From: Phytohabitans houttuyneae
Lineage (GTDB): Bacteria > Actinomycetota > Actinomycetes > Mycobacteriales > Micromonosporaceae
Reading direction: 5' to 3'
Assembly (NCBI RefSeq): GCF_011764425.1
Contig: NZ_BLPF01000001.1
Location: forward strand, 3,091,001 to 3,155,000
Length of the DNA: 64,000 bases
Shown here: one piece after another, positions 689 through 16,649 of the stretch
How the letters are laid out: every line of letters begins with the position of its first letter
Position numbering within the stretch: the stretch's first letter is position 1
Notes under the pieces: generated by a model
Databases searched by the model: none
What the model saw: only the letters and a program-made list of their open reading frames with translations
Told to the model about the DNA's origin: nothing
Position numbers and translations under genes: made by a program

Positions 689-1474
689 ATGACACGGATC
701 TTGATCACGGGTGCGTCGGACGGGCTCGGGCGGGCGCTCGCGTTCGCCCTGGCCGAGCGGGGGTACGAGCTCATCCTGCACGGCCGCGACGCCGGCCGTC
801 TCGCCGAGGTGGCCGACCGGACCGGCTCCCGGGCGATCCAGGCCGACCTCTCCTCGCTGGCCGAGGTGCGCCGGCTCGCCGGCGAGGTCGAGGGTGACCT
901 GGACGTGCTGGTCAACAACGCGGGCGTCGGCTTCGGCGCACCCGGCGCGCCCCGGGAGCTCTCGGCGGACGGTTACGAGCTGCGGCTGGCCGTCAACTAC
1001 CTCGCGCCGTACCTGCTGACCCAGCTCCTGCTCCCGCGCCTGAAGCGGGCCGCGCCGTCCCGGATCGTCAACGTGGCCTCGATCGGGCAGCGACCGTTCG
1101 ATGTGGACGATCCGATGATGGAGCGCGGCTACGACGGCACCGAGGCGTACCGGCGGGCGAAGCTGGCCCTCATCGCGTACACCTTCGACCTGGCCGACGA
1201 GCTCGCCGGCACCGGCGTGACCGTCAACTGCCTGCACCCGGCGACGCTGATGCCGACGACGATGGTGGTACAGGCCGGCACTGGCCACGTCGACACGCTC
1301 GAACGAGGGCTCCAGGCGACGCTGCGGCTCGTCGTCGATCCGCGGCTCGCGGGCGTGACCGGCCGTTTCTTCGACCGCGAACGCGAGGCGCGGGCCCTGG
1401 ACCAGGCCTACGACCCGGACTTTCGCAAGCGTCTCCGGGAGCTCACCGAGTCGCTAGTCTCGGCACGGGCGTGA
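689..1474 (+). CDS. SDR family NAD(P)-dependent oxidoreductase
   Basis: Classical short-chain dehydrogenase of 261 residues; substrate unknown. Seen: nucleotide-binding TGASDGLG at residues 7-14, NNAG at 76-79, a serine in VASIG and the catalytic YRRAK (Y-x3-K). The ATG at 689 is chosen because a perfect AGGAGG sits at 676-681, seven bases before it; an upstream in-frame start at 629 lacks such a site. The gene stands alone, and its 3' end overlaps by 32 bases the end of the convergent HD-hydrolase gene. Its C-terminal half (TGRFFDRERE) resembles SDRs of the retinol-dehydrogenase-like group. Reaction partner is not predictable from context. Confidence 0.88.
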   Translation: MTRILITGASDGLGRALAFALAERGYELILHGRDAGRLAEVADRTGSRAIQADLSSLAEVRRLAGEVEGDLDVLVNNAGVGFGAPGAPRELSADGYELRLAVNYLAPYLLTQLLLPRLKRAAPSRIVNVASIGQRPFDVDDPMMERGYDGTEAYRRAKLALIAYTFDLADELAGTGVTVNCLHPATLMPTTMVVQAGTGHVDTLERGLQATLRLVVDPRLAGVTGRFFDREREARALDQAYDPDFRKRLRELTESLVSARA

Positions 1475-2492
1475 GCCGCGCGCGGCTCGGCAGCCGCCCC
1501 GCGGCCAGCGCCCGGGCCCGGTCGGTGACGGCCGTCCTGGCGCCCACGAAACACAGGTCTGGCTGCTGCTCGCGGACGGCGTCGATGCGCGGCCTGAAGT
1601 CGGCGGGGCTCGCCACACCGATCCGCACCGCCCGCCGCACGAAGTCGTCTTCGTCGATGAGCACGAGGTCGACGTCGCCGTAGCGGGCCAGGTAACGCGG
1701 CATCACCTCGCCGCGCATCCAGCTCGACCGGCACACCATCTCGTTGTTGACCGGGAAGACGCGGGGACGGATGAAATGCGCCTTGACGGCCGACGCGACG
1801 TCGAGCAGGCGCTCCGGCCGGTCTTCGCGCTCCAGCACGCGCCACATCAGGTCGCGGAAGAGTCGGGCGAACTCGGCGCGGAACACCAGCGGGTCGGGCG
1901 TGCCCGTGCCGTGGAACTCGCGGGCCAGCCGGCGGGCCCGGCCGCGCCACGGCTCGGCGCGGAGCCTGAAGCCAAGCACCCGGGAGACCGTGTCGGGGAT
2001 GTAGTCGGGCCGCACGTTGAGCCCGGTCACGAGCAGCAGCGGGTCTTCGACCACGCCGGTGATGGCGTCGGCGCCGAGCACGATGCGACCCTCGGGACTC
2101 AGCTCGTCGATCCGCTTGTGGTGCACGCCGGCGAGGTCGGCGAAGTCCTCATCGGACAGTCGAGCGTCGAGGAGCGCCTTGCTGAACACGCGGGTGTTGC
2201 CGGCCTGGTCGAACCGCCCCACCTCGGTGTTGTGCGCGAAGGGCCACCTGTTGAGGTCGTGGTGGAGGCAGAGTCGCACGACGCGCTCGACGTCGACACC
2301 GGGCTGCCGCTCGGCGAGCCGCCGGGCCACCCAGGTCATGCGGCCGACATGCCATATCCGGGCAAATGCCGACGAACGAGGATCGCGGTCTTCTCCGTAT
2401 ACCGAAACAAAGCCCGTGATGCGACGCAACCGACGAAGCGCGCGAACAGTGCTGTAACCGCTGGGCGCCAGGGGAGCCGGAACGACCGTCAC
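1443..2492 (-). CDS. HD-domain phosphohydrolase, dGTPase-like
   Basis: Predicted metal-dependent phosphohydrolase of 349 residues. Seen: the HD-superfamily metal ligands in order, H48 (RIWHVGR), H78-D79 with the following NRWPFAHNTE, and D142 (LGADAITG). The spacing and the HD-x5-PF-x-H-x2-E pattern recall bacterial dGTP triphosphohydrolases, where the same segment reads HD-x5-PF-x-H-x2-E. The GTG at 2492 is chosen because it overlaps the stop of the radical SAM gene (GTGA) and follows a GGAGGGG about ten bases upstream; an ATG at 2528 is the alternative. It is the last gene of a three-gene operon. By inference the substrate is a nucleotide or the product of the two upstream enzymes. No close family name recognised. 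Confidence 0.75.
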   Translation of the reverse strand: MTVVPAPLAPSGYSTVRALRRLRRITGFVSVYGEDRDPRSSAFARIWHVGRMTWVARRLAERQPGVDVERVVRLCLHHDLNRWPFAHNTEVGRFDQAGNTRVFSKALLDARLSDEDFADLAGVHHKRIDELSPEGRIVLGADAITGVVEDPLLLVTGLNVRPDYIPDTVSRVLGFRLRAEPWRGRARRLAREFHGTGTPDPLVFRAEFARLFRDLMWRVLEREDRPERLLDVASAVKAHFIRPRVFPVNNEMVCRSSWMRGEVMPRYLARYGDVDLVLIDEDDFVRRAVRIGVASPADFRPRIDAVREQQPDLCFVGARTAVTDRARALAAGRLPSRARLTPVPRLATR

Positions 2493-3658
2493 GCCGCGAT
2501 CCCCCCTCCGGTAAACGACCCCAGCCACGCCTTCTGACGGCGCACACCCTGGGCTCGAATCGCCATATGCCGACCGTAGCCGTGCAACAGTGTATTGTAG
2601 TCAAACTCGTCGATCATGTCACCGATCACCAGCTCCCCCGCCGTGACCGATACCAATCCTGCGTCGAGACTCAGGAAGGCGGCCACCCTGGCGGCCAGGG
2701 TCGCACCGCCCGTCCACTCACCGGCCGCCGCCACGGCGCACCGGTCACGCTGCGCTATCGGGCACGCGGCGGGCAGGCAGCGGCTCTCGACGAACGGCGG
2801 CCGCCACGTGCCCAGGGCCTCAGGCCGTCCACTGAGGAACGCCAGCGCGCAGGACGTGTTGCGGTACAGCGGGTAACCGGCCGCCACGGCGAACTCGCGC
2901 GCCTCCGCCCAGCCCTCGTCGTCGAACACCTCACCCTCGCCGGGCGGCGCGGCCATCGACTGGTCCAGCAGCGTGACGAGGCGCTCGTCCGCCAGCGGTA
3001 CCCCCGGCCCGCGGGTGAGCCCGACCACCACCGAGGCGGACAGGCCCGACGTGGCCAGCCGCCCGACAAGCTTTTCCAGGTCGGCGTGGCTCGGGCGGAG
3101 CTCGGCCACGAACGGGCGCCAGAAGTGCACCGCCTTCTGGTGGGTGGTGCGGGACACGAGGCGGGCGTTGTCGAGCGTGGTGTCCAGGTCGGCGACCGGC
3201 CCGCGCTCAAGCGGCACGCCGGCGGTACGCGCCATCGACTGGCTGAGAAACCAGTAGATCGGGAGGCCGGGCGCGTCAAGCGCGCTGAGCAGGTCGGCGT
3301 CGAGCCGCCCCTTGGTCACCACGACGACCGGTCGGCGCGGGATGCGCTCCGCGAGCAGCTCCACGATCCGCACCAGCGCGTCCCGGTTGGGGCGGGTCAG
3401 CACCATGTCGGTGTAGTTACCCACGCAGAGCGGTGTCTTGTCGTACGCCGGGTCGATCACGCCGGCCCGCCGCCCGTACAGGTGATCTTCGACGGCCGCC
3501 ACCACCATCTCGGGGGTGGCCCGCACCTCCGGGCGGGCGGCGCGCAGGCCGAGGGGGCCGAGATAGCAGTACGCGCAGTCCGCCGGGCAGCCGAGAATCG
3601 GGTCCACCGTGATCCACGAGTCGTGCTCCGCCACCAGGGGGACGGCGGCCCGGGTCAC
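2489..3658 (-). CDS. Radical SAM protein (SplB-like architecture)
   Basis: Radical S-adenosylmethionine enzyme, 389 residues. Seen: the 4Fe-4S/SAM motif C24-x3-C28-x2-C31 (GCPADCAYC) near the N-terminus, preceded by a short strand, as in the spore-photoproduct-lyase-like branch; then a TIM-barrel-sized region, and a second cysteine group C294, C299, C307 that could bind another cluster or zinc. The GTG at 3658 overlaps the stop of the kinase gene (GTGA), and the stop overlaps the start of the HD gene, so all three products are probably made together. The reaction is unknown. It is not a DNA-repair lyase by any residue I can point to, and no peptide substrate gene is adjacent. Confidence 0.8.
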   Translation of the reverse strand: MTRAAVPLVAEHDSWITVDPILGCPADCAYCYLGPLGLRAARPEVRATPEMVVAAVEDHLYGRRAGVIDPAYDKTPLCVGNYTDMVLTRPNRDALVRIVELLAERIPRRPVVVVTKGRLDADLLSALDAPGLPIYWFLSQSMARTAGVPLERGPVADLDTTLDNARLVSRTTHQKAVHFWRPFVAELRPSHADLEKLVGRLATSGLSASVVVGLTRGPGVPLADERLVTLLDQSMAAPPGEGEVFDDEGWAEAREFAVAAGYPLYRNTSCALAFLSGRPEALGTWRPPFVESRCLPAACPIAQRDRCAVAAAGEWTGGATLAARVAAFLSLDAGLVSVTAGELVIGDMIDEFDYNTLLHGYGRHMAIRAQGVRRQKAWLGSFTGGGIAA

Positions 3659-5586
3659 CTGTCGTCCGTCGCCTGCCACGCGTCGAAGACCGCCGTTCGC
3701 GCTCTCCTGCATCGCTCCTCCAGCGAAGTAGCGTCGGTGACCGCGTCCGCGTTGTTCCAGTGGAACGAGAACGTCTCCTCCAGGAGCCGCTTCATGTGCA
3801 GGCCGCCCGGCTCGAACTGCAGCTCGAACGTGTCGAACAGCACCCGCTCGCGCCGGTTGCGGGAAGCGTGGAAGTACGGCTCGAAGAAGGTGGCCTGCTC
3901 CGTCAGCAGCACCGTGGCGCCGAGGCCGAACCGGGCGAGCCTGACCTCCACCAGGCTCTTGTACTCCTCCCGGAGAATCTCGTATCCGCGCAGGCTGGCC
4001 TCGAACTTGCGGGCCAGGTCGGCGTGCAGCTCCAGACGGTCCGGCACGACCGAGCCGAGCCGGCGGCCGTCCGGGTCGTAGCTGGCGGAGATCCCGTACG
4101 CCTCGAGGAAGTACGGATTGCAGATCACCATCTGGAGGCTTGCGCCCGCAGCCAGCAGGTGCAGGATGCGGGAGTTGAACACGCCACGAGTGGCCAGGTA
4201 CGAATACCCCGTCTCGGCGGTGATCCGGACGGACGCGCCGCGGGCGGCGGAGGCGTGCAGTGCGGCCTCCTTGGCGCGATTGCGCTTTTCGTTCGTGAGC
4301 CGCTCGTGTCCGTGCATCGGCACATACGCGGCGGTGCAGCGTAGCAAGGTCAACGCTTCGGCGGTGGTCGATATCACTGTATCCGGAGCGTAGCGATGAC
4401 CGTCAAGCATTCTGCGCAGCGCAGTGATCATCCGGAGCAGCGAAAGCATGTCGACCCCGGCCGCGACAGGGCCGTTGTTGGTCACCCATCGGATCCGCTT
4501 GAGGCATTCACTGAGCAGAAACCAGCGGTACATCATCGCGGCGCCCGGCAGTGACGTGCCGCGCAGCACCGCGCACAGCTCCTGCCGCCACATCCGCAGG
4601 CTGCGGCGGTGCCGCGGCTCGTCGGGCGAGTCGCGGAGGGCGAAGTCGTCGTCGCCGACAAGATTGACGGTCTCCAGCAGCTCGTCCTGCACGAGCGCGC
4701 CGCTGTGCGCGTGGCGGGGAGTGGTGTGCAGGACCAGGTCCACCTCGAACCGGGCCAGGTCCTCGAAGACGTGCGCCTGCCGCCCCTTGCCGAAGTCGAT
4801 CAGGTCGACCTCCGCGCGCACGCTGTTGACGAGGATGTTCGCCAGGTGGGCGTCGCCGTGGATCAACCGCCGGTCGGCCACCGGCGCCACCCGCACCGCG
4901 GCTGCCGCCTCGGTGTACCAGGCGCGGAAGTCGCGCAGGTCCTCGATGTCGGACCACAGCGCCGCGGCCGTGGTCAGGCTCGCGTTGATGTCCCGCTCCC
5001 AGTCGACGTCCGGCAGGTAGTCGACGAGCGCCCGCCCCTCTTCCTCGTTCTGCAGGTCGGCGTTGCGCACCAGCAGGCTGGCGACCTTGTAGAGGCAGGC
5101 GCGCACGGTCCGCTCCGGCGGCGCGCCCTCCACCGTCTGCGGCAGCGCGAACGCCTGGAGAAACCCGCCGAACTCGCTGTAGTCGGCCAGCTCGCGGTAC
5201 GTGCGGCTGCCGATGTAGCGGTACGCCATCGCGCTCCAGCTCTCCGACTGGTCGCGAAATTCGACGTCGACCGGGCCGTAAATGCCGTCGAGCTGGTTGT
5301 TGACGAGCCATTCGTCGGCGGAGCCCAGGAATTGGACCCGGTTTTCGTGCTCCAGCCGAATCTCGCCGGTCGGGCCGCCTTTGAGAATGAAAAGGCCGCG
5401 TCCCGGCGCATACACGAGTGCGACGAGCAGGCCGCTGTAGCCGCCTTGCAACACGCGCACGTCGACCGTGGCGCCCGCTTTGGACCTGTCCGGCGGCTGA
5501 TCCCCCACCACCAGGTGGACGAGGCGCCGGACATCGCCGGCCGTCAGTTCGGAATGCTTGCCGATCACGGTCAGCCGGGGCGGCAC
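3655..5586 (-). CDS. APH-like kinase fused to a C-terminal HKD-like domain
   Basis: Two-domain protein of about 643 residues, first gene of the operon with the radical SAM and HD genes. Seen: an aminoglycoside-phosphotransferase fold with the catalytic loop HGDAHLANILV near residues 244-254 and the metal-binding IDFGKG about 15 residues later. The C-terminal part from about residue 430 (SVRITAETGYSYL, LLAAGASLQMVICNPYF) resembles the degenerate phospholipase-D/HKD-like domains found at the end of some actinobacterial regulators, but I see no HxK-x4-D catalytic pair. The GTG at 5586 follows GGAGA; a TTG at 5604 is the alternative. Inference: a kinase acting on a small molecule or protein, with a sensor or effector tail. 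Confidence 0.7.
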   Translation of the reverse strand: MPPRLTVIGKHSELTAGDVRRLVHLVVGDQPPDRSKAGATVDVRVLQGGYSGLLVALVYAPGRGLFILKGGPTGEIRLEHENRVQFLGSADEWLVNNQLDGIYGPVDVEFRDQSESWSAMAYRYIGSRTYRELADYSEFGGFLQAFALPQTVEGAPPERTVRACLYKVASLLVRNADLQNEEEGRALVDYLPDVDWERDINASLTTAAALWSDIEDLRDFRAWYTEAAAAVRVAPVADRRLIHGDAHLANILVNSVRAEVDLIDFGKGRQAHVFEDLARFEVDLVLHTTPRHAHSGALVQDELLETVNLVGDDDFALRDSPDEPRHRRSLRMWRQELCAVLRGTSLPGAAMMYRWFLLSECLKRIRWVTNNGPVAAGVDMLSLLRMITALRRMLDGHRYAPDTVISTTAEALTLLRCTAAYVPMHGHERLTNEKRNRAKEAALHASAARGASVRITAETGYSYLATRGVFNSRILHLLAAGASLQMVICNPYFLEAYGISASYDPDGRRLGSVVPDRLELHADLARKFEASLRGYEILREEYKSLVEVRLARFGLGATVLLTEQATFFEPYFHASRNRRERVLFDTFELQFEPGGLHMKRLLEETFSFHWNNADAVTDATSLEERCRRARTAVFDAWQATDDR

Positions 5587-5715
5587 GAAGTCTCCAGACG
5601 ACAAAAGAAACGAGGGGTCAAGGCCGATGCTAGCCGCGCCCAGATTGTCTGGTCTACCGGTGCCGTGCCCGCTTCGCTACTCTGCGGTTCGTCTACTGGG
5701 GAGGGATCATCACCG

Positions 5716-6165
5716 ATGGGTGTTGGCGAGTGGGCGGCCTTCACGGCCGCGTTCATCAGCGGCGCGAACATCGTGGTCACCGCGGTCCTGACCCGCAGCC
5801 GCGACCGTACGAGCTGGTCGCGGGAGGCCCTCTCGGACACGCTGGTCGCCCTGCTGGAAGCGAGCTGGCGCAGCTCGGACGCGGCCCGCGAGCGTCACGG
5901 CCTCGGCACCCATCCCGGTGACGCGCAGATCGCCGCTCGGCTTGAGGACACGATGGAGGCCGCGTTCGCCGAGCTCCGCACCAGCCTGACCCGCCTGCGC
6001 CTCTTCGCGTCGGAGCCCGTCGGCGCGGCCGGCGTCGACCTGCTGATCAGGCACCGTGAGCTGCGCGACGCCCCCATGACCGACCAACCGGCCCGCCTGG
6101 AAGCGGTCGGCGCGGCGCGCCGCAAGCTCATCCAGGCGGCACGCCGCGACCTCAAGACCGACTGA
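5716..6165 (+). CDS. Small membrane-anchored protein, unknown function
   Basis: 149 residues: one N-terminal hydrophobic segment (about residues 6-25, AFTAAFISGANIVVTAVLTR), then a charged, mostly helical cytoplasmic domain. No enzyme motif is visible. It is transcribed away from the kinase/radical SAM/HD operon, sharing a 130-base intergenic region with it, so it may be co-regulated or part of the same system. Proteins with one anchor and a short helical tail are common in actinomycetes and mostly unnamed. The ATG at 5716 is the only good start; no strong ribosome binding site is seen. Confidence 0.6.
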   Translation: MGVGEWAAFTAAFISGANIVVTAVLTRSRDRTSWSREALSDTLVALLEASWRSSDAARERHGLGTHPGDAQIAARLEDTMEAAFAELRTSLTRLRLFASEPVGAAGVDLLIRHRELRDAPMTDQPARLEAVGAARRKLIQAARRDLKTD

Positions 6166-6170
6166 CGGCG

Positions 6171-6563
6171 TTACTTCGACGGCGGCTCGTCCTGGCCGGA
6201 CTCCTCGGCCTTGTCGGCCTCTTCCTTCGTCTTGTGCACCGCGCCGTCCGCGTGCTCGGGCGGGCCGTACACCGTGTAGAGGACCAGAGGGTTGGGGCCG
6301 GTGTTGACGAAGTTGTGCTTCGTGCCGGCCGGTACCGCGACGAGGTCTCCCTGGGCGACCTTCCGGGTTCGGCCGCCGACCTTCGCCTCGCCCACGCCGC
6401 TGACGAACGTGAGGATCTGGTCGGTGTCCTCGTGCACCTCCTCGCCGATCTCACCGTTCGGCGGGATGGTCATGATCACTAGCTGTGCGTGCTCGCCAGT
6501 CCACAGAACGCGCCGGAAGTCCCGGTTCTCCTCGGCGACGGTCGCGATCGTGAAATGCTCCAT
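6171..6563 (-). CDS. Cupin domain protein
   Basis: Small single-cupin protein of about 130 residues. Seen: cupin motif 1 with GEEVHEDTDQILTFVSGVGE and motif 2 with PAGTKHNFVNTG, giving the usual His/Glu/Gln metal ligands of the beta barrel; the tail after position 105 is charged and probably disordered (KTKEEADKAEESGQ). The start MEHFTIATV is chosen by homology to the usual cupin N-terminus; an ATG six codons earlier (6581) is possible. The product is likely a cytoplasmic metal-binding or sugar/polyketide-type isomerase or storage protein, which cannot be decided here. It is divergent from the potassium channel gene. Confidence 0.78.
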   Translation of the reverse strand: MEHFTIATVAEENRDFRRVLWTGEHAQLVIMTIPPNGEIGEEVHEDTDQILTFVSGVGEAKVGGRTRKVAQGDLVAVPAGTKHNFVNTGPNPLVLYTVYGPPEHADGAVHKTKEEADKAEESGQDEPPSK

Positions 6564-6670: not shown

Positions 6671-7702
6671 GTGATCCATCTACCGTCACCCGCGCGGGGG
6701 CCGCTACGCGCGCTCAGCACGCGCCTGGTCGCCGCGGTCGGCCTGGTGCTGGGCATCGTCTTCGTGGTCTTCCTGGACCGCGACGGCTACCGCGACGTCA
6801 ACGAGGACGGGCTCACGCTCCTCGACTGCTTCTATTACGCGGTCGTGTCGCTGTCGACGACGGGCTACGGCGACATCACCCCGATCTCGGAGAGCGCGCG
6901 GCTCGTCAACGTCATCGTGATCACGCCGGCGCGGGTGCTCTTCCTGATCATCCTGGTCGGCACGACACTTGAGGTGCTTACCGAGCAGTACCGCACGAAT
7001 GCTCGCCTTACGCGGTGGAGAAGGCTCTTGAAGGACCACGTGATCGTCTGCGGCTACGGGACGAAGGGACGCAGTGCCGTCGCGGCGCTGCGCGAAAACG
7101 GCTTCGACACCAGGCGCATCGTCGTGGTCGAGTCCGACCGCGCGGCGGTGCGGCAGGCGACGTCCGACGGGCTTGTCGCGCTGGAGGGTTCGGCCACCCG
7201 CTCGTCCATCCTGGCCGACGCGCATGTCAAGGACGCCAAGGCGGTCATCATCGCGACCGACACCGACGAGGCGAACGTCCTGGTGACCCTCACCGCGCGG
7301 CAGATGACCGCCGGCAAGGTGCGGATCATCGCCGCCGCGCGCGAGGCGGAAAACGCCCCTCTCCTCAAGCAGAGCGGCGCCCACCAGGTGATCGTCTCCT
7401 CCGCGACGGCCGGCCGCCTGCTGGGTCTCTCCACGTCCGCGCCGCCCCTCATCGACGTGGTGGAAGACCTCCTCACCCCCGGACACGGCATGGCGCTGGC
7501 GCTCCGCTCGGCCGACCGCGCCGAGGTGGGCAAGTCGCCCCGCAAGGTGAGCGAGCTGGTGATCGCCCTGGTCCGCCACGGACGCGTGCTTTCGCTCGCC
7601 TCTCCCGAATGCGCGATGATCGAGACCGGCGACCTGCTGGTCTACATCCGCGACGACACCGCGGCACCGGTCGAGACCACCGTCAGCCGCGACGCCTCCT
7701 AG
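6671..7702 (+). CDS. Potassium channel with RCK (TrkA-N) domain
   Basis: Ion channel subunit of 343 residues in the cytoplasmic membrane. Seen: first transmembrane helix about residues 18-35, pore helix and selectivity filter TTGYGD at 63-68, second helix about 77-95, then an RCK domain starting at HVIVCGYGTKG (about 113-123) with a Rossmann fold that binds nucleotide or ions, and a C-terminal TrkA-C-like part. The layout matches MthK/Kch-type two-helix channels. The first helix is short and the loop before the pore is charged (DRDGYRDVNEDG). The GTG at 6671 is the start used. The stop overlaps that of the convergent VWA gene. Confidence 0.9.
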   Translation: MIHLPSPARGPLRALSTRLVAAVGLVLGIVFVVFLDRDGYRDVNEDGLTLLDCFYYAVVSLSTTGYGDITPISESARLVNVIVITPARVLFLIILVGTTLEVLTEQYRTNARLTRWRRLLKDHVIVCGYGTKGRSAVAALRENGFDTRRIVVVESDRAAVRQATSDGLVALEGSATRSSILADAHVKDAKAVIIATDTDEANVLVTLTARQMTAGKVRIIAAAREAENAPLLKQSGAHQVIVSSATAGRLLGLSTSAPPLIDVVEDLLTPGHGMALALRSADRAEVGKSPRKVSELVIALVRHGRVLSLASPECAMIETGDLLVYIRDDTAAPVETTVSRDAS

Positions 7703-9659
7703 CGGCGCGCGCGGCCGCGGCGGGCCCGGATGTAGTCGTTGACCACGTAGCTGCCGAGGTCGTCGGTGTCGGGGTGAAGACGCGGCCACCGCTGCGCCTG
7801 GCCACGGCGTCCACGAAGCGGCGCAGGCCCGCGTCCTCGCCGAGCATGAAGAGGTTGAGCGTCGCGCCGTACCTGGTCAGGGCGTCCACCTCGGCCACCG
7901 TCGCCTGGACGGTCTCGCTCAGCGGCGGCCAGAAGAACACCGCCTCGCCGTCCTCCAGATGTGCCGTGGGCTCACCGTCGGTCACCACCAGCACCACCGG
8001 CTCGCTGCCCGAGTGCTTGCGCAGGTGCCGGCCGGCGAGCTGGAGGGCGTGCTGGAGGTTGGTGCCCTGCACGTAGTCGGGTTCGACGGCGGCCAGCTCC
8101 TCCGACGTGAGCCGCGTGGCATACCGGCCGAAGCCGATGATCTGCAGCGCGTCCTGCGGAAACTTCGTCGCGACGAGGTGCGAGAGGGCGAGGGCCGTCT
8201 GCTTCATCGGGCCCCAGCGCTCTTCGGCGACCATCGAGTACGACAGGTCGACGCAGAGCGCGACGGCAGCCGAGGCACGCCGCTCGGTCTCCACGACCTC
8301 GAAGTCGTCGACCGCGAGCGAGACGGCCGAGGAGCGTGCCGAGGTGCTGCGGCGGACGGCGTTGCCGACCGTACGCACCACGTCGATGGGCTGCTCGTCG
8401 CCGAACTCCCAGGGCCGAGACGCACCGGTGATCTCGCCGGCGGCGCCCGCGTCCCGGAGGTCGTGCTGGCCCCTGCGGCCGGTCTCCAGCGAGGCGAAGA
8501 CGCGGCGCAGCGCGGTGCCACCCAGCCGGCGCAGCGCCTTCGGGCTGAGCGTGAGCCCCTCGCCGCCGCGGGCCAGCCAACCCTGCCGGCGCAGCTCGCG
8601 CTCCAGCTCCTGCAGGCGCCGCACGTCACCGGCCGCGCCCCGGCCGAGGATCCGCTCGACCGCTTCCACGTCGATGTCGTCGAGCGTCGCGCCGGGGTGC
8701 TCCTGGCCGAGCTGGTCGAGCAGCTCGTCCAGGTCGCCGATCTCGGCGAGCGCGCCGGCCGCCTCGCCGTACCCGAGTCCCTGCTGGCCGCGCACCTGGG
8801 CGCGCCGGTCCCAGCCCAGGTCGGGCCGGAGGGTGCGCAGGTTGGCGGTCAGCCGGGCCATCTGGTCGGCGAGCCCGGCGTTGCCCAGCGCCTGGGCCAT
8901 CAGCCGGGACAGCTCCTCCTGCTGCTGCGCGGAGAGCGAGCGCATCAGCCGTTCACCCGCGGCGGCGCGGCGGGCGAGGGCGTCGATCAGCTCGTCGACA
9001 GTGCCGGGCTTTTCCGGGAAGAACTCGCCGTGCCGCCGCATGAACTCGGCGAACGTGTCGGTCGTGTCCTCGCCCCGGGCGTGCCGGTCGAGCAGGTCGT
9101 TGAGGTCGCCGAGCATCTCGGCGAGGCGGCGCTGGGCGGCCGGGTCGGGGTTGCCGAGCGCCTCGCGCATGCCCGCGAAGCGCTGCTCCAGCACCTCGTC
9201 GCGCAGGCCGTCGAGGATCTGCTGGTACGTGCGGCGCGCGTCATCGCTTGCCCACTGGTAGTCGGAGAGCTCCTCGACCGCCCGGGCGGTGGAGCGGGGC
9301 AGGCTGTCCAGCCGCGCCTCGCTGAACCGGGCCGCGTCGTCGGTGCGGCTGGCAAGCTCCTCCCGCTCGGCGGCGAGGGCCTGGTCGAGCAGCGCCTGCG
9401 AGCGGGTCACCGCGCCGTCGAGGTTGCCCCGGCGCATCGCCTCGCGGCGCATCCGCCGGGCCCGGGCGGCGAGGTCGTCAAGCCCCCGGCCGCCGTCTGG
9501 GCCGCGGCGCAGCAGGTTGCGCAGCGCTTCGCGCAGGCTGCCACCGGCCAGCACCTCGGCACCGACCTGGTCGACCGCGGCACGCACGTCGTACGGCGGG
9601 GCGAGCGGGTCGGGCCCGCCTTGCCACGCGCCGTAGCGGAACCGGTTCGGACGCTTCAT
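7683..9659 (-). CDS. VWA domain protein, probable 3' frameshift
   Basis: Partner of the MoxR-type ATPase just upstream; the two overlap by four bases. About 658 residues as read. Seen: a long helical N-terminal half rich in Arg/Glu, then a von Willebrand A domain with the metal-ion site DLSYS near residue 470 and a VVTDGEPTAHL strand. The last 30 codons look shifted: the expected ending TPDTDDLGSYVVNDYIRAR appears in another frame if one C is restored next to 7770, which moves the stop to 7699, exactly against the potassium channel stop. By analogy with MoxR/VWA pairs the product probably works as a chaperone or assembly factor; the client is unknown. Confidence 0.85.
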   Translation of the reverse strand: MKRPNRFRYGAWQGGPDPLAPPYDVRAAVDQVGAEVLAGGSLREALRNLLRRGPDGGRGLDDLAARARRMRREAMRRGNLDGAVTRSQALLDQALAAEREELASRTDDAARFSEARLDSLPRSTARAVEELSDYQWASDDARRTYQQILDGLRDEVLEQRFAGMREALGNPDPAAQRRLAEMLGDLNDLLDRHARGEDTTDTFAEFMRRHGEFFPEKPGTVDELIDALARRAAAGERLMRSLSAQQQEELSRLMAQALGNAGLADQMARLTANLRTLRPDLGWDRRAQVRGQQGLGYGEAAGALAEIGDLDELLDQLGQEHPGATLDDIDVEAVERILGRGAAGDVRRLQELERELRRQGWLARGGEGLTLSPKALRRLGGTALRRVFASLETGRRGQHDLRDAGAAGEITGASRPWEFGDEQPIDVVRTVGNAVRRSTSARSSAVSLAVDDFEVVETERRASAAVALCVDLSYSMVAEERWGPMKQTALALSHLVATKFPQDALQIIGFGRYATRLTSEELAAVEPDYVQGTNLQHALQLAGRHLRKHSGSEPVVLVVTDGEPTAHLEDGEAVFFWPPLSETVQATVAEVDALTRYGATLNLFMLGEDAGLRRFVDAVARRSGGRVFTPTPTTSAATWSTTTSGPAAAARAARRRRG

Positions 9660-11059
9660 TCCCGGCTCCCGTAGAGGGTGCGCCCCTCCTCGGTCATGGC
9701 CTTGGAGAGGCGGCGGGTCAGGTGCAGCCCTTCCAGTGCGAACTCCACGCCGGCGGCGGCCTGCTGGACCGTTGGCGCGTCGTCGAAGCCGAGCCGCTCG
9801 AGCACCTTGGCCAGCCCGGGCACGGTGCCGACCTGGCGCAGCAGGTCTTCGGCGCCGACAAGCTCGCCGGTCTCCACGATCGCGCCCTCGGCCACCAGGT
9901 CGGTGAAGCCGGACAGGTCGAGCCCCGCCAGCCGGGCCCGGAACGTCTCGGCGGTCGCGGTGCGGAGCAGGTGGGCGAGTACCTCGATCTCGCGCCCCTC
10001 CTCGCCACTCTCGAACTCGACCTTGCCGCGCAGCGTGCTGGTGATCGAGGTGGCGTCGCCGATGCGGGCGGTCGGGATCGGCTCGCCCACGATGCCGCTG
10101 CGGCGCAGCGCCGACGCGGCCACCGTCTCGGCCGCCGCGATCGCGAAGCGCGCGGAGACACCGGAGCGGGCGTCGACCGACGGCGACTCGCGGACCGCGC
10201 GGGCGAAGCGGGCGATGACCTCCAGGACGTGGTCGGGCACCTCGGCCACGAGCCGCGCCTCCTGGCGGATCAGGTCGAGCTCCAGCCCCAGCTCCAGCGG
10301 ATAGTGGGTACGGATCTCGGCGCCGAAACGGTCCTTGAGCGGCGTGATGATGCGGCCGCGGTTGGTGTAGTCCTCGGGGTTGGCGCTGGCCACGAGCAGC
10401 AGGTCGAGCGGGAGGCGCAGCTGGTAGCCGCGGACCTGCACGTCGCGCTCCTCCAGCACGTTGAGCAGCGAGACCTGGATCCGCTCGGCGAGGTCGGGCA
10501 GCTCGTTGACCGCGAAGATGCCGCGGTTGGTGCGCGGCACGAGTCCGAAGTGGATGGTCTCCGGGTCGCCGAGGGTGCGGCCCTGCGCCACCCGGATGGG
10601 GTCGACGTCGCCGATGAGGTCGCCGACGCTCGTGTCCGGCGTGGCGAGCTTCTCGCCGTACCGCCGGGAGCGGTGCAGCCAGCGGATCGGCAGCTCGTCG
10701 CCGAGCTCCTCGGCCTGGCGGCGGGAGGTCGGGGTGAGCGGCTCGTACGGGTGCTCGTTGAGCTCGGAGCCCTCGATCACAGGCGTCCACTCGTCGAGGA
10801 GCCCGACAAGCGAGCGGATGACGCGGGTCTTGCCCTGGCCACGCTCACCGAGCAGGACCATGTCGTGGCCGGCGAGGATGGCGCGCTCGACCTCGGGCAG
10901 CACGGTGTCGTCGTATCCGACGATGCCGGGAAACCGTGGGCTGCCGTCGCGCATCTGAGCCAGAAGATTTTCGCGGAGCTCTTCCTTGACCGTGCGGTGC
11001 CGGTGACCGCTCGCGCGGAGCGCACCGACCGTCCTGATGGTGTCAGGCGTTGATGTCAC
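9656..11059 (-). CDS. MoxR/magnesium-chelatase-like AAA+ ATPase
   Basis: AAA+ ATPase of 467 residues. Seen: Walker A GERGQGKT at about residues 70-77, an insertion rich in charged residues, NRGIFAVNELPDL as the Walker B/sensor region, and VASANPEDYTNRGR as the sensor motif typical of the magnesium chelatase I and MoxR group. It starts with GTG at 11059 and overlaps the VWA gene, forming the classical ATPase/VWA pair that remodels or activates other proteins. There is no chlorophyll or cobalamin chelatase subunit nearby, so a chelatase role is not supported. The upstream intergenic space (442 bases) is shared with the conservon cluster. Confidence 0.88.
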   Translation of the reverse strand: MTSTPDTIRTVGALRASGHRHRTVKEELRENLLAQMRDGSPRFPGIVGYDDTVLPEVERAILAGHDMVLLGERGQGKTRVIRSLVGLLDEWTPVIEGSELNEHPYEPLTPTSRRQAEELGDELPIRWLHRSRRYGEKLATPDTSVGDLIGDVDPIRVAQGRTLGDPETIHFGLVPRTNRGIFAVNELPDLAERIQVSLLNVLEERDVQVRGYQLRLPLDLLLVASANPEDYTNRGRIITPLKDRFGAEIRTHYPLELGLELDLIRQEARLVAEVPDHVLEVIARFARAVRESPSVDARSGVSARFAIAAAETVAASALRRSGIVGEPIPTARIGDATSITSTLRGKVEFESGEEGREIEVLAHLLRTATAETFRARLAGLDLSGFTDLVAEGAIVETGELVGAEDLLRQVGTVPGLAKVLERLGFDDAPTVQQAAAGVEFALEGLHLTRRLSKAMTEEGRTLYGSRE

Positions 11060-11501: not shown

Positions 11502-12605
11502 ATGAGCGCTGCCACGCCGAACGCGCCCACGAGGGTTTCGCTGCTGAGACCGCTGCTCGTGTTCGCACTGCTGATCCCCGTCGGGGTGCTCTTCGGGCAG
11601 GCGTGGCAAGGGCAGTCGGACCGCCTCTCCTTCGCCGCCCGGGAGCGGCAGGGCATCGAGTACCTCACCACGCTCGGCCAGGTGACGACCGCGCTGACCG
11701 ACGCGCAGTCCGCCGCGGTGGCCGGGCGGCCGGCGGACCGGGCCGCGGTCACGCGAGCGGTCGACGCCACCACCGCCGTTGACGACCGCCTCGGCGACGA
11801 GCTGCGTACGAGCGAGCGCTGGTCCGGCCTGCGCGTGAAGATCGAGGCGCTCTCCTCGGTGCCGCCCGGCGACAAGGCGCGGATCTACGACGCGTACGGC
11901 GAGGTCACCGACCTGCTGCTCGCCCTCTACGGCAAGGTCCGGGAGAACTCGCAGCTGATCCGCGACCCCGAGGCGGACACGTACTTCCTCCAGGACGGCG
12001 CGGCCGAGGAACTGCCTGAGTCGGTGGTCGCGGCGGGCAAGTTCGCCGACCTCGTGGTCATCGCCGCGGGCCGGCCCGCCGCGGAGCGCACGGCCGCGAT
12101 CGCCGACCTCACCGCCGCGCGGGGCGCGGTCCTCGACCCCGCCGCCGACCTCGCCGACGGTCTGCAGTCCGCGGTGGACAGCACCGAGAGCCGCACGCTC
12201 GGCGCCAACCTGCTCAGCCGGCTGGACCGCTTCCGCCGCAGCATGGACGGGCTGGCCACCTCGGCCGGCTCGCTCGACGGGCGGTCACCGCTGCCGACGG
12301 CCGACCGGCTCAACCCCGCCCGGATCGAGGTGCAGTCGGCCGCGTCCGAGCTCTCCAACGCGATCCTCGCCGAGCTCGACGTGCTGATCGCCGACCGGCA
12401 GTCGGGCATCCGCACGGAACGGTTCGTCTCGCTCGCCACGCTCGTCGTGGCGGTGCTGGGCTGCGCGGTACCGGCGGTGCTGGCCCTGACCAGGCGACGG
12501 CGACACCGGCGTCCGTTCGACGGTCCACATCGGCCGGTGCCACCGCGCACCTCGGCGCCGGCGCAGACCGAGAGCCAGTGGGAGCCCGTCGGTGCTGCTC
12601 GGTAG
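11502..12605 (+). CDS. Membrane receptor-like protein preceding the conservon
   Basis: 367 residues with two transmembrane helices (about 15-32 and 305-328) enclosing an all-helical extracytoplasmic domain of about 270 residues, and a short Arg/Pro-rich cytoplasmic tail. The sensor resembles the nitrate/nitrite-type (NIT) helical domain also present in CvnA. It has no kinase part. The ATG at 11502 is preceded by GGGAGG eight bases upstream. Its end overlaps the start of cvnA by 14 bases, so the two are translationally coupled and may form a receptor pair. I infer a regulatory or co-receptor role; it is not one of the four canonical conservon genes. Confidence 0.75.
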   Translation: MSAATPNAPTRVSLLRPLLVFALLIPVGVLFGQAWQGQSDRLSFAARERQGIEYLTTLGQVTTALTDAQSAAVAGRPADRAAVTRAVDATTAVDDRLGDELRTSERWSGLRVKIEALSSVPPGDKARIYDAYGEVTDLLLALYGKVRENSQLIRDPEADTYFLQDGAAEELPESVVAAGKFADLVVIAAGRPAAERTAAIADLTAARGAVLDPAADLADGLQSAVDSTESRTLGANLLSRLDRFRRSMDGLATSAGSLDGRSPLPTADRLNPARIEVQSAASELSNAILAELDVLIADRQSGIRTERFVSLATLVVAVLGCAVPAVLALTRRRRHRRPFDGPHRPVPPRTSAPAQTESQWEPVGAAR

Positions 12606-15180
12606 GCTGCGCATCCGCGGCAAGCTGGCGGTCCTGGTCATGGTGCCGCTGCTCCTCGTCGGTGTGCTCACCGTCCCGCTCGTCGTCAACCGGGCCGGCC
12701 TCGCCGGCCGTGCCGCGGACACCGCCCGCACCGTGCGGATCGCCAGCGAGGTCGGCGGCCTCGTCGGTGACCTGCAGCAGGAGCGCATGCTGTCGGTCGG
12801 CTACCTGCTCGGCACCGTCGACACCGCCGGCCTCACGCTGCAGAGCACCGCGGTCGCCGACCGCACCGCGGACCTGCGCGCGTCGCTCGGCGACGACCTG
12901 CCGCCCGCCGTGTCGCGGGCGATCGACACGATCGGCGACCTGGAGAAAGTACGCGCCGGCGTGCTCGGCAGGGCCATCCGCAGCGACCAGGTGATCGCGG
13001 CGTACGGCGCGGTGACCGCCCGCATCCTCGACTCGCTGCGTCTGCTCGACAACATCGACGTGGCCAGCGCCGGCGGGCGGCAGGTTGTCGCACTCGACGC
13101 CGTACTCCAGATGAACGACCTGATCAGCGCCGGCGCCGCGCTGATGGTGGTCATGGTCGCCGAGCGCAGCGCCGGCTCGATGACCGGCTACACCGCCAAC
13201 ATCGCCGCGCTGCAGGCCATCATCACGCGCTTCAACGCGTACGCGACGCCGGAGCAGAGCAGCCTCTTCCAGCTCGTCCAGCAGGCACTCAACGACCGGG
13301 TGGGCGCCGACTTCCCGGTCACGGTGCAGACCAACCCGCTCCAGGCGCTGGCCCGGTTCACGGTGCAGCAGCTCTACCCGTCGCTCGAGTCGTTCATCGT
13401 CCTGGGCCGGTTCGTCGAGCGCAAGATCGTCACGGACGTCACGGCGGAGGTCGAGCGGCAGCAGACGGTCGTCCTCACCACCGCGTACGGCGTCATCACG
13501 CTCGCCCTCCTCGTGCTCATCGGCGTCGTGCTGATGAGCGTCGTCGTGGCGCGCGCGGTGGCCCGGCCGCTGTCAAGCCTCACCCGCTCCGCCGAACGCG
13601 TGGCCACCGTCGCCGAGACCGAGCTGCGGCGGGTCGCCGACGAGGACGCCGACGACGAGGCCGAACCCATCCATCTGGAACCCGTCGACGTCCGCTCCGC
13701 CGACGAGATCGGCGACCTCGCCCGCGCGTTCGACAGGGTGCAGACCACCGCCGCCCGGCTTGTCGAGCGGCAGGTCAGCAGCCGGCGGAACGTGGCGCAG
13801 ATGTTCGGCCACGTCGGCCGCCGCACGCAGAACCTGGTGGGCCGGCAGATCGCGCTCATCGACCGGCTGGAGCAGGAGGAGACCGACCCGCAGCGGCTGC
13901 AGCAGCTGTACCGGCTCGACCACGTCTCCAGCCGCCTGCGGCGCAACGCGGGAAGCCTCGTCGTGCTCTCCGGCTCGGCCGGCGTCTCCGGTGCGGAGGA
14001 GCACATCGTGCCGCTGCCGCTCGCCGACATCGTGCGCCTCGCGCTCGGCGAGATCGAGGAGTACACCCGAGTCGACGTGCAGGTGCCCGGCGGCATCGCG
14101 GTCGCGCCCGCGGTCACCGGCGACCTGGTGCTGCTGCTGGCCGAGGTGATGGAGAACGCGACGGTGTTCTCCCCGCCGCACACCCGCGTCACGGTCAACG
14201 CGATGGTGACCGGCCACGTGGTACGCCTCCGCGTCGTCGACCACGGCCTCGGGCTGTCCCCCGAGCGGATCGCCGAGGAGAACGCCCGCCTGGCCCGCCG
14301 CGAGCGCCTCGACCTGGCGCCGACCGAGGTGCTCGGGCTCTTCGTGGTCGGGCGGCTGGCGCGTAAACACGGCCTCGCCGTCGCGCTCTCCGAGACGCCG
14401 GGCGGCGGCGTGACCGTCACCGTCGACATCGGGCAGGACCACCTGGTGCGCACCGCGATCCAGGAGCCGGACCCGGTGCCACCGCCCCAGCCGCCGAAGC
14501 CGGCGCGCGGCCTCGCCTCGGTACGGCACCTGAACGTGGCACCGTCGTACGGCGGCGACGAGCCGGCGGTCGTACAGCGCGCGGTGGCCCGCGCCCTCGT
14601 GGCGACCGCCGAGCACGAGCCGTCCTTCAACGTGGACGCGCTGGACCGGGCCACGCGCACGATCGGCAGCGGCAACTCCTGGAACGCGTTCGCGCCGCGG
14701 CCAGCCGCACCGCCGGTACCCCCTGCTGATCCGGCACCGGCGGCGACGCCCGCGCCCGCGCCGCGGACCGCGCCCACCCACGGTGGCCTCCGCCAGCGGG
14801 TCCCGGGAGCGCAGCTCCCGGAGGGGACGGCACCCGGCGCGGACCGCACGCCGGCGCCCACGGGGGTCGATGCCGCGACGGCGCGGGCGCTGGTGGAGGA
14901 GTTCGAAGCGGGGGTACGCCGCGCGGAGTCCACCGTGTCCGACGAGCCGGTCGCGCGCAGCGAGGTGCCGCCGGTGATCGCGCCGCCCGCACCGGGCCCG
15001 CGTGCCCCACTCACCCGCCGGGTGCCCGGCGCCACGCTGCCGGCGGACATCCCGACCCAGCCGCCGCCGCAGGTACTGCCCGACCAGTGGTCGCCCGATC
15101 CGGACGCGGCCCGGGACTCGCTCGAGCAGTTCGAATCCGGCGTCGCGCGCGCCTTGCAGCAGGAAGGAACCCAGCAGTGA
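12592..15180 (+). CDS. cvnA: Conservon sensor-kinase-like protein CvnA
   Basis: 862-residue membrane protein. Seen: transmembrane helix about 11-32, a helical NIT-like sensor domain about 40-290, second helix about 298-322, HAMP-like linker, a DHp-like helix pair (HVSSRLRRNAGSLVVLSG near 443), and a GHKL ATPase domain with N-box VMENATVFSPPHTRV near 517, VVDHGLGLSP near 549 and the later GLFVVGRLARKHG. The last 270 residues are Pro/Ala-rich and probably disordered. In Streptomyces, conservons act as membrane complexes resembling G-protein-coupled signalling. Whether it autophosphorylates is unclear. GTG start at 12592 with GGGAG upstream; the stop overlaps the cvnB start. Confidence 0.9.
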   Translation: MLLGRLRIRGKLAVLVMVPLLLVGVLTVPLVVNRAGLAGRAADTARTVRIASEVGGLVGDLQQERMLSVGYLLGTVDTAGLTLQSTAVADRTADLRASLGDDLPPAVSRAIDTIGDLEKVRAGVLGRAIRSDQVIAAYGAVTARILDSLRLLDNIDVASAGGRQVVALDAVLQMNDLISAGAALMVVMVAERSAGSMTGYTANIAALQAIITRFNAYATPEQSSLFQLVQQALNDRVGADFPVTVQTNPLQALARFTVQQLYPSLESFIVLGRFVERKIVTDVTAEVERQQTVVLTTAYGVITLALLVLIGVVLMSVVVARAVARPLSSLTRSAERVATVAETELRRVADEDADDEAEPIHLEPVDVRSADEIGDLARAFDRVQTTAARLVERQVSSRRNVAQMFGHVGRRTQNLVGRQIALIDRLEQEETDPQRLQQLYRLDHVSSRLRRNAGSLVVLSGSAGVSGAEEHIVPLPLADIVRLALGEIEEYTRVDVQVPGGIAVAPAVTGDLVLLLAEVMENATVFSPPHTRVTVNAMVTGHVVRLRVVDHGLGLSPERIAEENARLARRERLDLAPTEVLGLFVVGRLARKHGLAVALSETPGGGVTVTVDIGQDHLVRTAIQEPDPVPPPQPPKPARGLASVRHLNVAPSYGGDEPAVVQRAVARALVATAEHEPSFNVDALDRATRTIGSGNSWNAFAPRPAAPPVPPADPAPAATPAPAPRTAPTHGGLRQRVPGAQLPEGTAPGADRTPAPTGVDAATARALVEEFEAGVRRAESTVSDEPVARSEVPPVIAPPAPGPRAPLTRRVPGATLPADIPTQPPPQVLPDQWSPDPDAARDSLEQFESGVARALQQEGTQQ

Positions 15181-15608
15181 ACAACTCACTCCAGTTGAGC
15201 CCCGAGGCGCAGACCTTCAACTGGCTCCTGGACTCGTTCACGTCCAGCACGGCCGGTGTGCGGGAGGCCATCGCGGTCTCCGCCGACGGCCTGCTGATGG
15301 CGATGTCCAACATCGCCGACCGCGCGAACGCCGAGCGGCTCGCCGCTGTGGTCTCCGGGCTCACCAGCCTCGCCGGCGGGGCGGCCAACTGGTACGCCCT
15401 CGGCGGCCTCAACCGCGTGGTCATCGACATGACGGGCGGGTACCTGCTGGTCACCGCCATCAGCGCGGGCTCGGTGCTGGGCGTGATCGCCGAGCGGACG
15501 GCCAGCCTCGGCACGGTGGCGTACGAGATGACGCTCTTCGCCAGCCGCGCCGGCGGTGCGCTCACGCCGCGCCTCATCGCGGAGCTGAAGAACGCCGCCC
15601 AGTCGTGA
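15177..15608 (+). CDS. cvnB: Roadblock/LC7 protein CvnB
   Basis: 143-residue roadblock/LC7-fold protein, the second conserved member of the conservon. Seen: the typical order FNWLLDSFTSSTAGVREAI, a glycine-rich LLMAMSN strand, and a LVTAISAGSVLGVIAE core. In conservons and in MglB-like proteins this fold binds and regulates a small Ras-like GTPase, here CvnD. The GTG overlaps the cvnA stop (GTGA), and its own stop overlaps the cvnC start in the same way, so the three are translated in a chain. Confidence 0.93.
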   Translation: MNNSLQLSPEAQTFNWLLDSFTSSTAGVREAIAVSADGLLMAMSNIADRANAERLAAVVSGLTSLAGGAANWYALGGLNRVVIDMTGGYLLVTAISAGSVLGVIAERTASLGTVAYEMTLFASRAGGALTPRLIAELKNAAQS

Positions 15609-16045
15609 CCCACGTCCCGCCCGAGGAGCCGGCGGGGCCCGCCCGCATCCGGCCCTTCCTGGGCGTCTCGGGGCTTGGTGCGCAGCCGGCGGACGCCACG
15701 CCGGCCGGGCTGCGACCGTTTGTGCTCACCTCCGGCCGGGTGGACGGCGTGGACCCGGACATCGGCCTGGAGACACAGGTCACGGCCCGCTCGGACGGGC
15801 CGCTGCGCACCGGTGTACCGGTGTCCAGCCTGGCGCCCGAGCTGCGCACGATCATGGCGCTGTGCGCGGAGCCGATCTCGGTGGCCGAGATCTCCGCGCG
15901 GGCCCGGCTGCACCTCGGCGTGACCCGCATCCTCGTCGGCGACCTGCGGGCCGCCGGCTACCTCGACGTCCACGCGCGGGATGCCGCGCGTCCCGACCCC
16001 GACACCATCCTGCGAGTGATCCGTGGACTTCGTGCGATCTCCTGA
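15605..16045 (+). CDS. cvnC: DUF742 protein CvnC
   Basis: 146 residues with the DUF742 features of CvnC: a variable N-terminal half (IRPFLGVSGLG, RPFVLTSGRVDG) and a winged-helix-like C-terminal half (LCAEPISVAEISARARLHLGVTRILVGDL). The biochemical role is not established; it always sits between the roadblock protein and the GTPase and is thought to belong to the same membrane complex. GTG start overlapping the cvnB stop; 23-base overlap with cvnD. Confidence 0.92.
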   Translation: MTHVPPEEPAGPARIRPFLGVSGLGAQPADATPAGLRPFVLTSGRVDGVDPDIGLETQVTARSDGPLRTGVPVSSLAPELRTIMALCAEPISVAEISARARLHLGVTRILVGDLRAAGYLDVHARDAARPDPDTILRVIRGLRAIS

Positions 16046-16613: not shown

Positions 16614-16649
16614 GCCGGCGGGCTCGCTGGCCCTAGGAGGTGTTTCGGA

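What the first reader, a model, noticed from the sequence alone, without database searches (positions are those of the whole stretch)
1443..6165. Candidate undescribed system: APH-like kinase/HKD-like fusion, radical SAM enzyme and dGTPase-like HD hydrolase, divergent from a small membrane protein
Seen: three minus-strand genes joined by GTGA overlaps (stops at 3655 and 2489, starts at 3658 and 2492), so fixed ratios are likely. The first product has an APH catalytic loop (HGDAHLAN) plus a C-terminal HKD-like domain; the second has C-x3-C-x2-C plus a second cysteine group; the third has H48, HD78-79 and D142 in a dGTPase-like HD-x5-PF-x-H pattern. A one-helix protein starts 130 bases away on the other strand. 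Known: dGTPase-type HD enzymes and radical SAM viperins act in phage defence by altering nucleotide pools. Inference: the operon could make or destroy a modified nucleotide, as defence, signalling or a small-molecule pathway. No peptide precursor or transporter is adjacent.
Basis: partly seen in the sequence, partly recalled or inferred. Interest (0 to 1): 0.8.

Follow-up and report, generated by a model that had tools for sequence, protein, structure and literature searches.

The report
Mobile radical-SAM, kinase and dNTPase cassette
Four neighbouring genes in a soil actinobacterium come and go together as one block and encode a kinase, a radical enzyme and an enzyme shaped like known nucleotide cutters, which together look like an undescribed way for bacteria to make and control an unusual nucleotide, perhaps for defence against viruses or rivals.

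Summary
The genes are real and conserved as a unit. Kinase, radical SAM (rSAM) and HD genes lie in the same order in 9 of 9 trio loci found, from four genera, one of them unnamed and taken to be Streptomyces. In a congener lacking the trio, the flanking SDR and cupin genes match with 8 bases between them, so the trio plus its small membrane protein (1443-6165) is one gained or lost block. Distribution is patchy.

Best reading: kinase and rSAM build or modify a nucleotide, the HD enzyme controls it, and the shared domain and membrane protein regulate it, most likely in conflict or defence. A published nucleoside-antibiotic cluster (rSAM, kinase, NTPase) is the main rival. No chemistry or phage test was possible.

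The parts
3655..5604 (-). Gene 1: APH-like kinase (about residues 1-400) fused to a conserved C-terminal domain of about 235 aa without a clear Pfam match; 649 aa, TTG start
   Evidence: HGDxxxxN and IDFG motifs, K75, E85, D251, D270 invariant in 9 of 9; C-terminal domain shared with TPR proteins of an unnamed genus
2489..3658 (-). Gene 2: radical SAM enzyme, 389 aa, C24-x3-C28-x2-C31, W180-R181-P182 and C-terminal four-cysteine group C270/C294/C299/C307
   Evidence: these residues invariant in 11 of 11 wider-family members
1443..2492 (-). Gene 3: HD-domain hydrolase with a dNTPase/dGTPase-like predicted fold, 349 aa
5716..6165 (+). Gene 4: small protein with one N-terminal hydrophobic stretch, 149 aa; belongs to the same indel block as the trio
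   Evidence: hydropathy 1.88 over residues 7-25; relatives in 3 congeners and in L066 (E 2.5e-21); absent with the trio from G004
1460..6180 (.). Approximate cassette boundaries: in congener G004 the matches to window positions 1459 and 6181 are 8 bases apart

Best explanation
The four genes form a mobile conflict (probably anti-phage) cassette that works on nucleotides. Shown by sequence or model: a conserved unit, an APH-like kinase with its active-site residues, an rSAM enzyme with a possible extra metal site, an HD protein with a dNTPase-like predicted fold, a conserved C-terminal domain on the kinase, and a partner with one hydrophobic helix. Inferred: the C-terminal domain and membrane partner regulate the system; on a trigger, the kinase phosphorylates a nucleoside or nucleotide-like substrate and the rSAM enzyme converts it, by a 5'-deoxyadenosyl radical, into a nucleotide analogue that poisons nucleic-acid synthesis, as viperin products do (recalled). 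The HD enzyme strips phosphates from the analogue (or from dNTPs), which protects the host or limits the response. In the other branch the same domain is coupled to a viperin-like rSAM and a NUDIX hydrolase, that is, the same logic with different enzymes.
For: Unit: full trio in order in 9 of 9 loci (window; 8 fetched loci); pairwise-identity matrices correlate at 0.965-0.981 (four of the nine rows are close congeners); clean indel with gene 4. Patchiness: 4 of 6 genomes of the window's genus, 1 of 65 (the query genome itself) in the genus of A. bangladeshensis, 2 of 295 of the unnamed genus g92, 1 of 396 phylum genomes for HD, the own one. Nucleotide chemistry: HD model and residues; plasmid rSAM cousins beside thymidylate synthase-NDK-exonuclease-ATPase-aldo/keto reductase or exonuclease-ATPase-HD. 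Viperin parallel: C-terminal domain on TPR proteins, with a one-helix protein, NUDIX and viperin-like rSAM, complete in 6 of 9 loci; two of the seven viperin-like proteins were scanned, PADLOC pVip 2.7e-22 and 1.5e-26; a search of 295 genomes found the viperin-like gene in the same six genomes and in none of the 289 others. Conflict context: Sa_NUDIX just upstream in 2 Glycomyces; HEC-05 candidate beside the cassette in P. suffuscus; caspase-WD40 and EACC1 genes near one copy; cousins near a DncV-like nucleotidyltransferase, TIR, anti-phage dGTPase and ABC three-component genes.
Confidence: 0.5

Rival explanations
1. A minimal nucleoside-antibiotic cluster: kinase and rSAM make a secreted toxic nucleoside, and the HD enzyme hydrolyses its triphosphate to give self-resistance.
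For: Published precedent thmA-C of Photorhabdus: rSAM, nucleoside kinase and nucleoside triphosphatase make 4'-thiothymidine, and thmC alone confers resistance (PMC12691670, section 7). Streptomyces plasmid rSAM cousins sit with thymidylate synthase and NDK or with murA and aldolase genes.
Against: No transporter or precursor gene in the cassette; the C-terminal domain and membrane partner look regulatory, and that domain is shared with loci that mostly carry a viperin-like gene. Homology of ThmA to P0002 was not tested (sequence not on hand).
Confidence: 0.25
2. The HD enzyme is the effector that drains dNTPs on infection (Clover-like), and kinase plus rSAM make or remove the small-molecule signal that keeps it off.
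Confidence: 0.15
3. Accessory small-molecule or macromolecule modification unrelated to conflict (for example salvage, cofactor, RNA or peptide modification).
For: Ordinary-looking chromosomal setting in the window (by eye); weak rSAM similarity to the PA0069/Rv2578c families.
Against: Patchy distribution, clean cassette indel and repeated conflict-gene neighbours of relatives.
Confidence: 0.1

Closest known systems
dGTPase / dNTP triphosphohydrolase HD enzymes (Thermus dNTPase 2dqb, E. coli dGTPase, Clover CloA)
   Different: Sequence far below curated cut-offs (16.1 of 385 bits); shorter; operon with kinase and rSAM
Prokaryotic viperins (pVip)
   Same: rSAM with a nucleotide-type partner; the kinase's C-terminal domain is linked elsewhere to a viperin-like rSAM
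   Different: P0002 itself matches no viperin model
thmA-C 4'-thiothymidine cluster (Photorhabdus, PMC12691670)
   Same: Three-gene logic: rSAM, kinase, nucleoside triphosphatase
   Different: Sequence homology not tested; no fused regulatory domain or membrane protein is mentioned in the section read
TCAD9 / NTP-dependent ternary conflict systems (PMC7159879)
   Same: Actinomadura kinase passes the Pfam TCAD9 cut-off (62.1 of 40 bits); the paper mentions APH-like kinases in such systems (passages)
   Different: No vWA-MoxR-VMAP genes in the cassette; P0001 and L006 have no TCAD9 hit at E up to 1
Octosyl acid phosphate synthase PolH with PolA (polyoxin)
   Same: rSAM cousins beside murA-like genes on Streptomyces plasmids
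   Different: PolH has its CxxxCxxC at 225-232 (PMC5365060, first third read), here at 24-31, so a different architecture

Membership tests
dNTPase/dGTPase HD hydrolase | H...HD...D metal ligands | tested here: met
   H48, H78, D79, D142 invariant in 9 of 9
dNTPase/dGTPase HD hydrolase | HE catalytic dyad (H-x2-E after the PF motif) | tested here: met
   H87 and E90 invariant in 9 of 9; that dNTPases need an HD motif and HE dyad is from PMC12265719; the exact placement of the dyad is recalled
dNTPase/dGTPase HD hydrolase | Fold of the family | tested here: met
dNTPase/dGTPase HD hydrolase | Curated family score (NCBIfam dGTP triphosphohydrolase) | tested here: not met
   16.1 of 385 bits
dNTPase/dGTPase HD hydrolase | dNTP hydrolysis | not testable with these tools
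   needs purified protein
Viperin | Match of P0002 to viperin models | tested here: not met
   no PADLOC hit, no NCBIfam viperin hit
Viperin (neighbour protein of the other branch, not in window) | Match to viperin models | tested here: inconclusive
   L051 and L053 proteins: PADLOC pVip 2.7e-22 / 1.5e-26; NCBIfam NF038283 74.8 and 89.3 of 180 bits
APH-like kinase | Pfam APH above cut-off; HGDxxxxN and DFG | tested here: met
   31.1 of 23.2 bits; motifs
Phospholipase D / HKD | HxKx4D motif in the C-terminal domain | tested here: not met
   absent from the C-terminal domain of 6 of 6
Radical SAM superfamily | CxxxCxxC | tested here: met
   C24/C28/C31 invariant in 11 of 11
Radical SAM superfamily | Pfam Radical_SAM cut-off | tested here: inconclusive
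   window 16.0, Actinomadura 32.1, cut-off 29.5
TCAD9 | Pfam TCAD9 cut-off | tested here: inconclusive
   Actinomadura 62.1 of 40; P0001 and L006 none at E up to 1; the other kinases were not scanned
thmA-C type cluster | Homology of the rSAM to ThmA | not tested
   ThmA sequence not on hand

The most novel reading that the evidence does not exclude
The cassette belongs to an undescribed two-branch family of actinobacterial nucleotide-based immune systems. The branches are united by one new C-terminal domain (on a kinase in one, on TPRs in the other) and usually a one-helix protein. Its chemical arm is interchangeable: a non-viperin rSAM with a dNTPase-like enzyme in branch A, and a viperin-like rSAM with a NUDIX hydrolase in branch B. 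It would be a second, distinct radical-SAM route to antiviral nucleotides.
Probability: 0.35. Interest if true: 0.88.

Novelty: new variant of a known kind. Interest (0 to 1): 0.74.

Why it matters
Viperin is the best known case of immunity by a radical-SAM-made nucleotide (recalled). A separate rSAM family, packaged with its own kinase and a dNTPase-like hydrolase and sharing a domain with viperin-like loci, would suggest that this kind of immunity arose more than once. It would also offer an unexplored source of nucleotide analogues. The four genes are small enough to express and test directly.

Tried and rejected
HKD/phospholipase reading: rejected for lack of HxKx4D and of a Pfam match. 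AF2 model of gene 1: mean pLDDT 40.5, not searched. PolH/NikJ identity for the murA-linked cousins: dropped after reading where the PolH motif lies. Viperin membership of P0002: rejected. Homology between the one-helix proteins of the sets: hhalign probability below 1% in all three pairings. Link to the MoxR/vWA-looking genes near 7.7-11 kb: two congeners without the cassette still match the window to 8473 (L043) and to 7952 (L044), so not treated as part of it. No relatives: rSAM or HD in viral contigs by pattern scan, rSAM in phages, kinase, HD or the branch-B domain in plasmids. PDB sequence searches gave only kinase-motif or weak hits. Fold searches: one Foldseek and one VIA search, HD model only. 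The label 'trypsin-like' for the branch-B 232-aa protein is by eye; Pfam finds nothing. In the genome search only part of the first-look candidates was scored in most genomes (for example 4 of 67, 8 of 47), so 'no match' there is a soft negative.
Full report
OBSERVATION. The three minus-strand ORFs and their GTGA overlaps are as described. Gene 1 (3655-5604) has the APH active-site motifs; gene 2 (2489-3658) has C-x3-C-x2-C and a second cysteine group; gene 3 (1443-2492) has the HD residues claimed. The divergent gene 5716-6165 has one N-terminal hydrophobic stretch. The HKD claim fails: no HxKx4D in the C-terminal domain of 6 of 6 members, and no Pfam match better than E 0.011 in 8 members.

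NAMES. Named sources are the window's genus (Phytohabitans, since its congeners' loci agree in coordinates with named P. suffuscus, P. flavus and P. maris records), two Glycomyces and Actinomadura bangladeshensis. The genus g92 that holds branch B and two trio loci is taken to be Streptomyces from its size, species number and class; this is inference.

CONSERVED UNIT. A scan of genome contigs with the rSAM protein gave 6 loci: three Phytohabitans, two Glycomyces, one Actinomadura. A search with the kinase's C-terminal domain in 295 genomes of g92 added two. With the window that is 9 loci, and all 9 hold kinase, rSAM and HD in that order. Between genera the proteins are 38-64% identical; the three identity matrices correlate at 0.965-0.981 (Mantel p 0.0001-0.0008, n = 9, four rows being close congeners). 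A 4-base overlap is possible between rSAM and HD in 6 of 9 loci and between kinase and rSAM in 5 of 9. Apart from distant relatives of the rSAM (G153, plasmids), I did not meet one gene of the trio without the others.

A CASSETTE. Of 6 genomes of the window's genus, 4 have the HD gene. In G004, which lacks it, the matches to window positions 1459 and 6181 are 8 bases apart. In G001 about 390 bases take the place. Neither has a kinase match. So gene 4 is gained or lost with the trio. In P. suffuscus a 3.6 kb stretch lies between gene 4 and the cupin gene; it holds a GmrSD_N gene that hits the defence candidate HEC-05 (PADLOC 2.6e-45; Pfam). A gene-4 relative accompanies the trio in L066 (E 2.5e-21), downstream instead of divergent upstream. 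L010 and L065 share another one-helix family at the divergent place (E 1.4e-49). The two Glycomyces loci have instead, just upstream on the same strand, a Sa_NUDIX gene (Pfam 3e-33 and 1.6e-33) with its own hydrophobic stretch (2.28 and 2.21); the one of L009 also hits PADLOC models named Effector (2TM, which I take to be CBASS; 2e-21) and RTasNUDIX (DRT; 2.3e-19). Distribution is sparse: 4 of 120 in the draw around G. albidus, namely that genome and three Phytohabitans; 1 of 65 in the genus of A. bangladeshensis, the query genome itself; 2 of 394 class genomes by rSAM, the own one and the distant G153; 1 of 396 phylum genomes by HD, the own one. Only part of the first-look candidates is scored in such searches, so these are soft negatives.

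RADICAL SAM PROTEIN. It is not a viperin and matches named families only weakly (PA0069, Rv2578c). An 11-member alignment with plasmid and genome cousins keeps C24, C28, C31, W180-R181-P182, C270, C294, C299 and C307 in all 11, which suggests a second metal site. The cousins, 21-29% identical to P0002, sit in telling places. Starting from the Rhizobium cousin, 37 plasmid records match; of the 24 that match at 50% identity or more over at least 87% of the query I looked at 9. In 3 of 3 Streptomyces plasmids among them the order is thymidylate synthase, NDK, rSAM, 3'-5' exonuclease, AAA/ATP-binding protein, aldo/keto reductase. In 3 of 4 Hyphomicrobiales plasmids it is rSAM, exonuclease, AAA, HD (Agrobacterium vitis lacks the HD). 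Gluconobacter has rSAM, exonuclease, AAA, aldo/keto reductase and Nostoc rSAM and AAA only. Neighbours include a DncV-like nucleotidyltransferase with patatin and ThiF genes, an annotated anti-phage dGTPase and a TIR protein, and an ABC three-component system. The Rhizobium HD hits PADLOC dGTPase (1.5e-8) but is not demonstrably homologous to P0003. Other cousins lie beside murA-like and aldolase genes, in two of three also a glycosyltransferase, in pFRL6 among deaminases and sugar-nucleotide genes, and in G153 beside NUDIX- and nucleotidyltransferase-like ORFs (by eye). These look biosynthetic and count against a pure defence reading.

THE SHARED C-TERMINAL DOMAIN. Searching with it alone found 4 of 246 class genomes including the own and 10 of 295 of g92. 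Two of the 10 are trio loci. The other 8, plus G319, carry the domain on a TPR protein. In 6 of these 9 loci the full set is present: one-helix protein (weakly hydrophobic), a 232-aa protein that looks trypsin-like by eye, TPR-domain protein, NUDIX and viperin-like rSAM. L069 and L070 lack the viperin-like gene; L071 has it but lacks the NUDIX and one-helix genes. Two of the seven viperin-like proteins were scanned: PADLOC pVip 2.7e-22 and 1.5e-26, but only 74.8 and 89.3 of the 180 bits NCBIfam asks, so viperin-like, not a filed viperin. In reverse, a search with seven of them found 6 of 295 genomes, each within 450 bases of the TPR-domain gene. Those six genomes also supplied six of the seven query rows, so the informative part is only that none of the other 289 had one, as a soft negative; the 3e-11 should not be used. 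Still, one domain joins two kinds of locus, each usually with a radical SAM enzyme, a nucleotide-type hydrolase and a one-helix protein. Homology of the one-helix proteins across sets is not shown.

MECHANISM AND RIVALS. I take the cassette to be a nucleotide-modifying conflict system (0.5). The closest published three-gene logic is thmA-C, in which rSAM, kinase and nucleoside triphosphatase make 4'-thiothymidine and the triphosphatase gives self-resistance (PMC12691670, passages and section 7). That favours nucleotide chemistry but equally supports an antibiotic rival (0.25). A Clover-like reading with the HD enzyme as effector gets 0.15 and an unrelated accessory pathway 0.1. The window's own surroundings give no help: by eye they are ordinary chromosomal genes; they were not scanned against PADLOC.

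LITERATURE. The listings show, by title and start of abstract, nothing that describes this combination; most of those papers were not opened (PMC10853773, for one, holds some of the terms and was not read), and the library lacks most subscription papers, so this is not proof of novelty. The ternary-systems paper PMC7159879 mentions APH-like kinases and a radical SAM effector in other contexts (passages); PMC10910872 mentions TCAD9 with vWA-MoxR systems (passages). General facts about viperin products are recalled, not from a call.

Noticed in passing
L008 1967-3946 (P. suffuscus): GmrSD_N/HEC-05-like defence candidate inserted between gene 4 and the cupin gene, beside the cassette.
   Followed up: partly
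L065 2379-4720: Caspase-WD40 gene and an EACC1 gene about 1.1 kb from the one-helix gene of a trio locus; a Mutator transposase gene lies about 2 kb beyond its HD gene.
   Followed up: partly
L014, L015, L016 (Streptomyces plasmids): Recurrent murA-like / class II aldolase / radical SAM cluster, in two of three with a glycosyltransferase; possibly an unstudied nucleoside natural-product cluster.
   Followed up: no
L072, L073, L079: Plasmid cluster thymidylate synthase-NDK-radical SAM-3'-5' exonuclease-ATPase-aldo/keto reductase, in L073 also with MazG-like and NUDIX genes; might be related to thymidine-analogue biosynthesis.
   Followed up: partly
L017 (pFRL6): Radical SAM cousin among dCTP deaminase, cytidine deaminase, UTP-glucose-1-P uridylyltransferase and glycosyltransferase genes.
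   Followed up: no
window 7683-11059: By eye, a vWA-containing gene next to a MoxR/Mg-chelatase-like ATPase gene; the near part is also matched in congeners without the cassette.
   Followed up: no
window 12592-17351: By eye, a sensor kinase / roadblock-like / GTPase gene row typical of an actinobacterial conservon.
   Followed up: no
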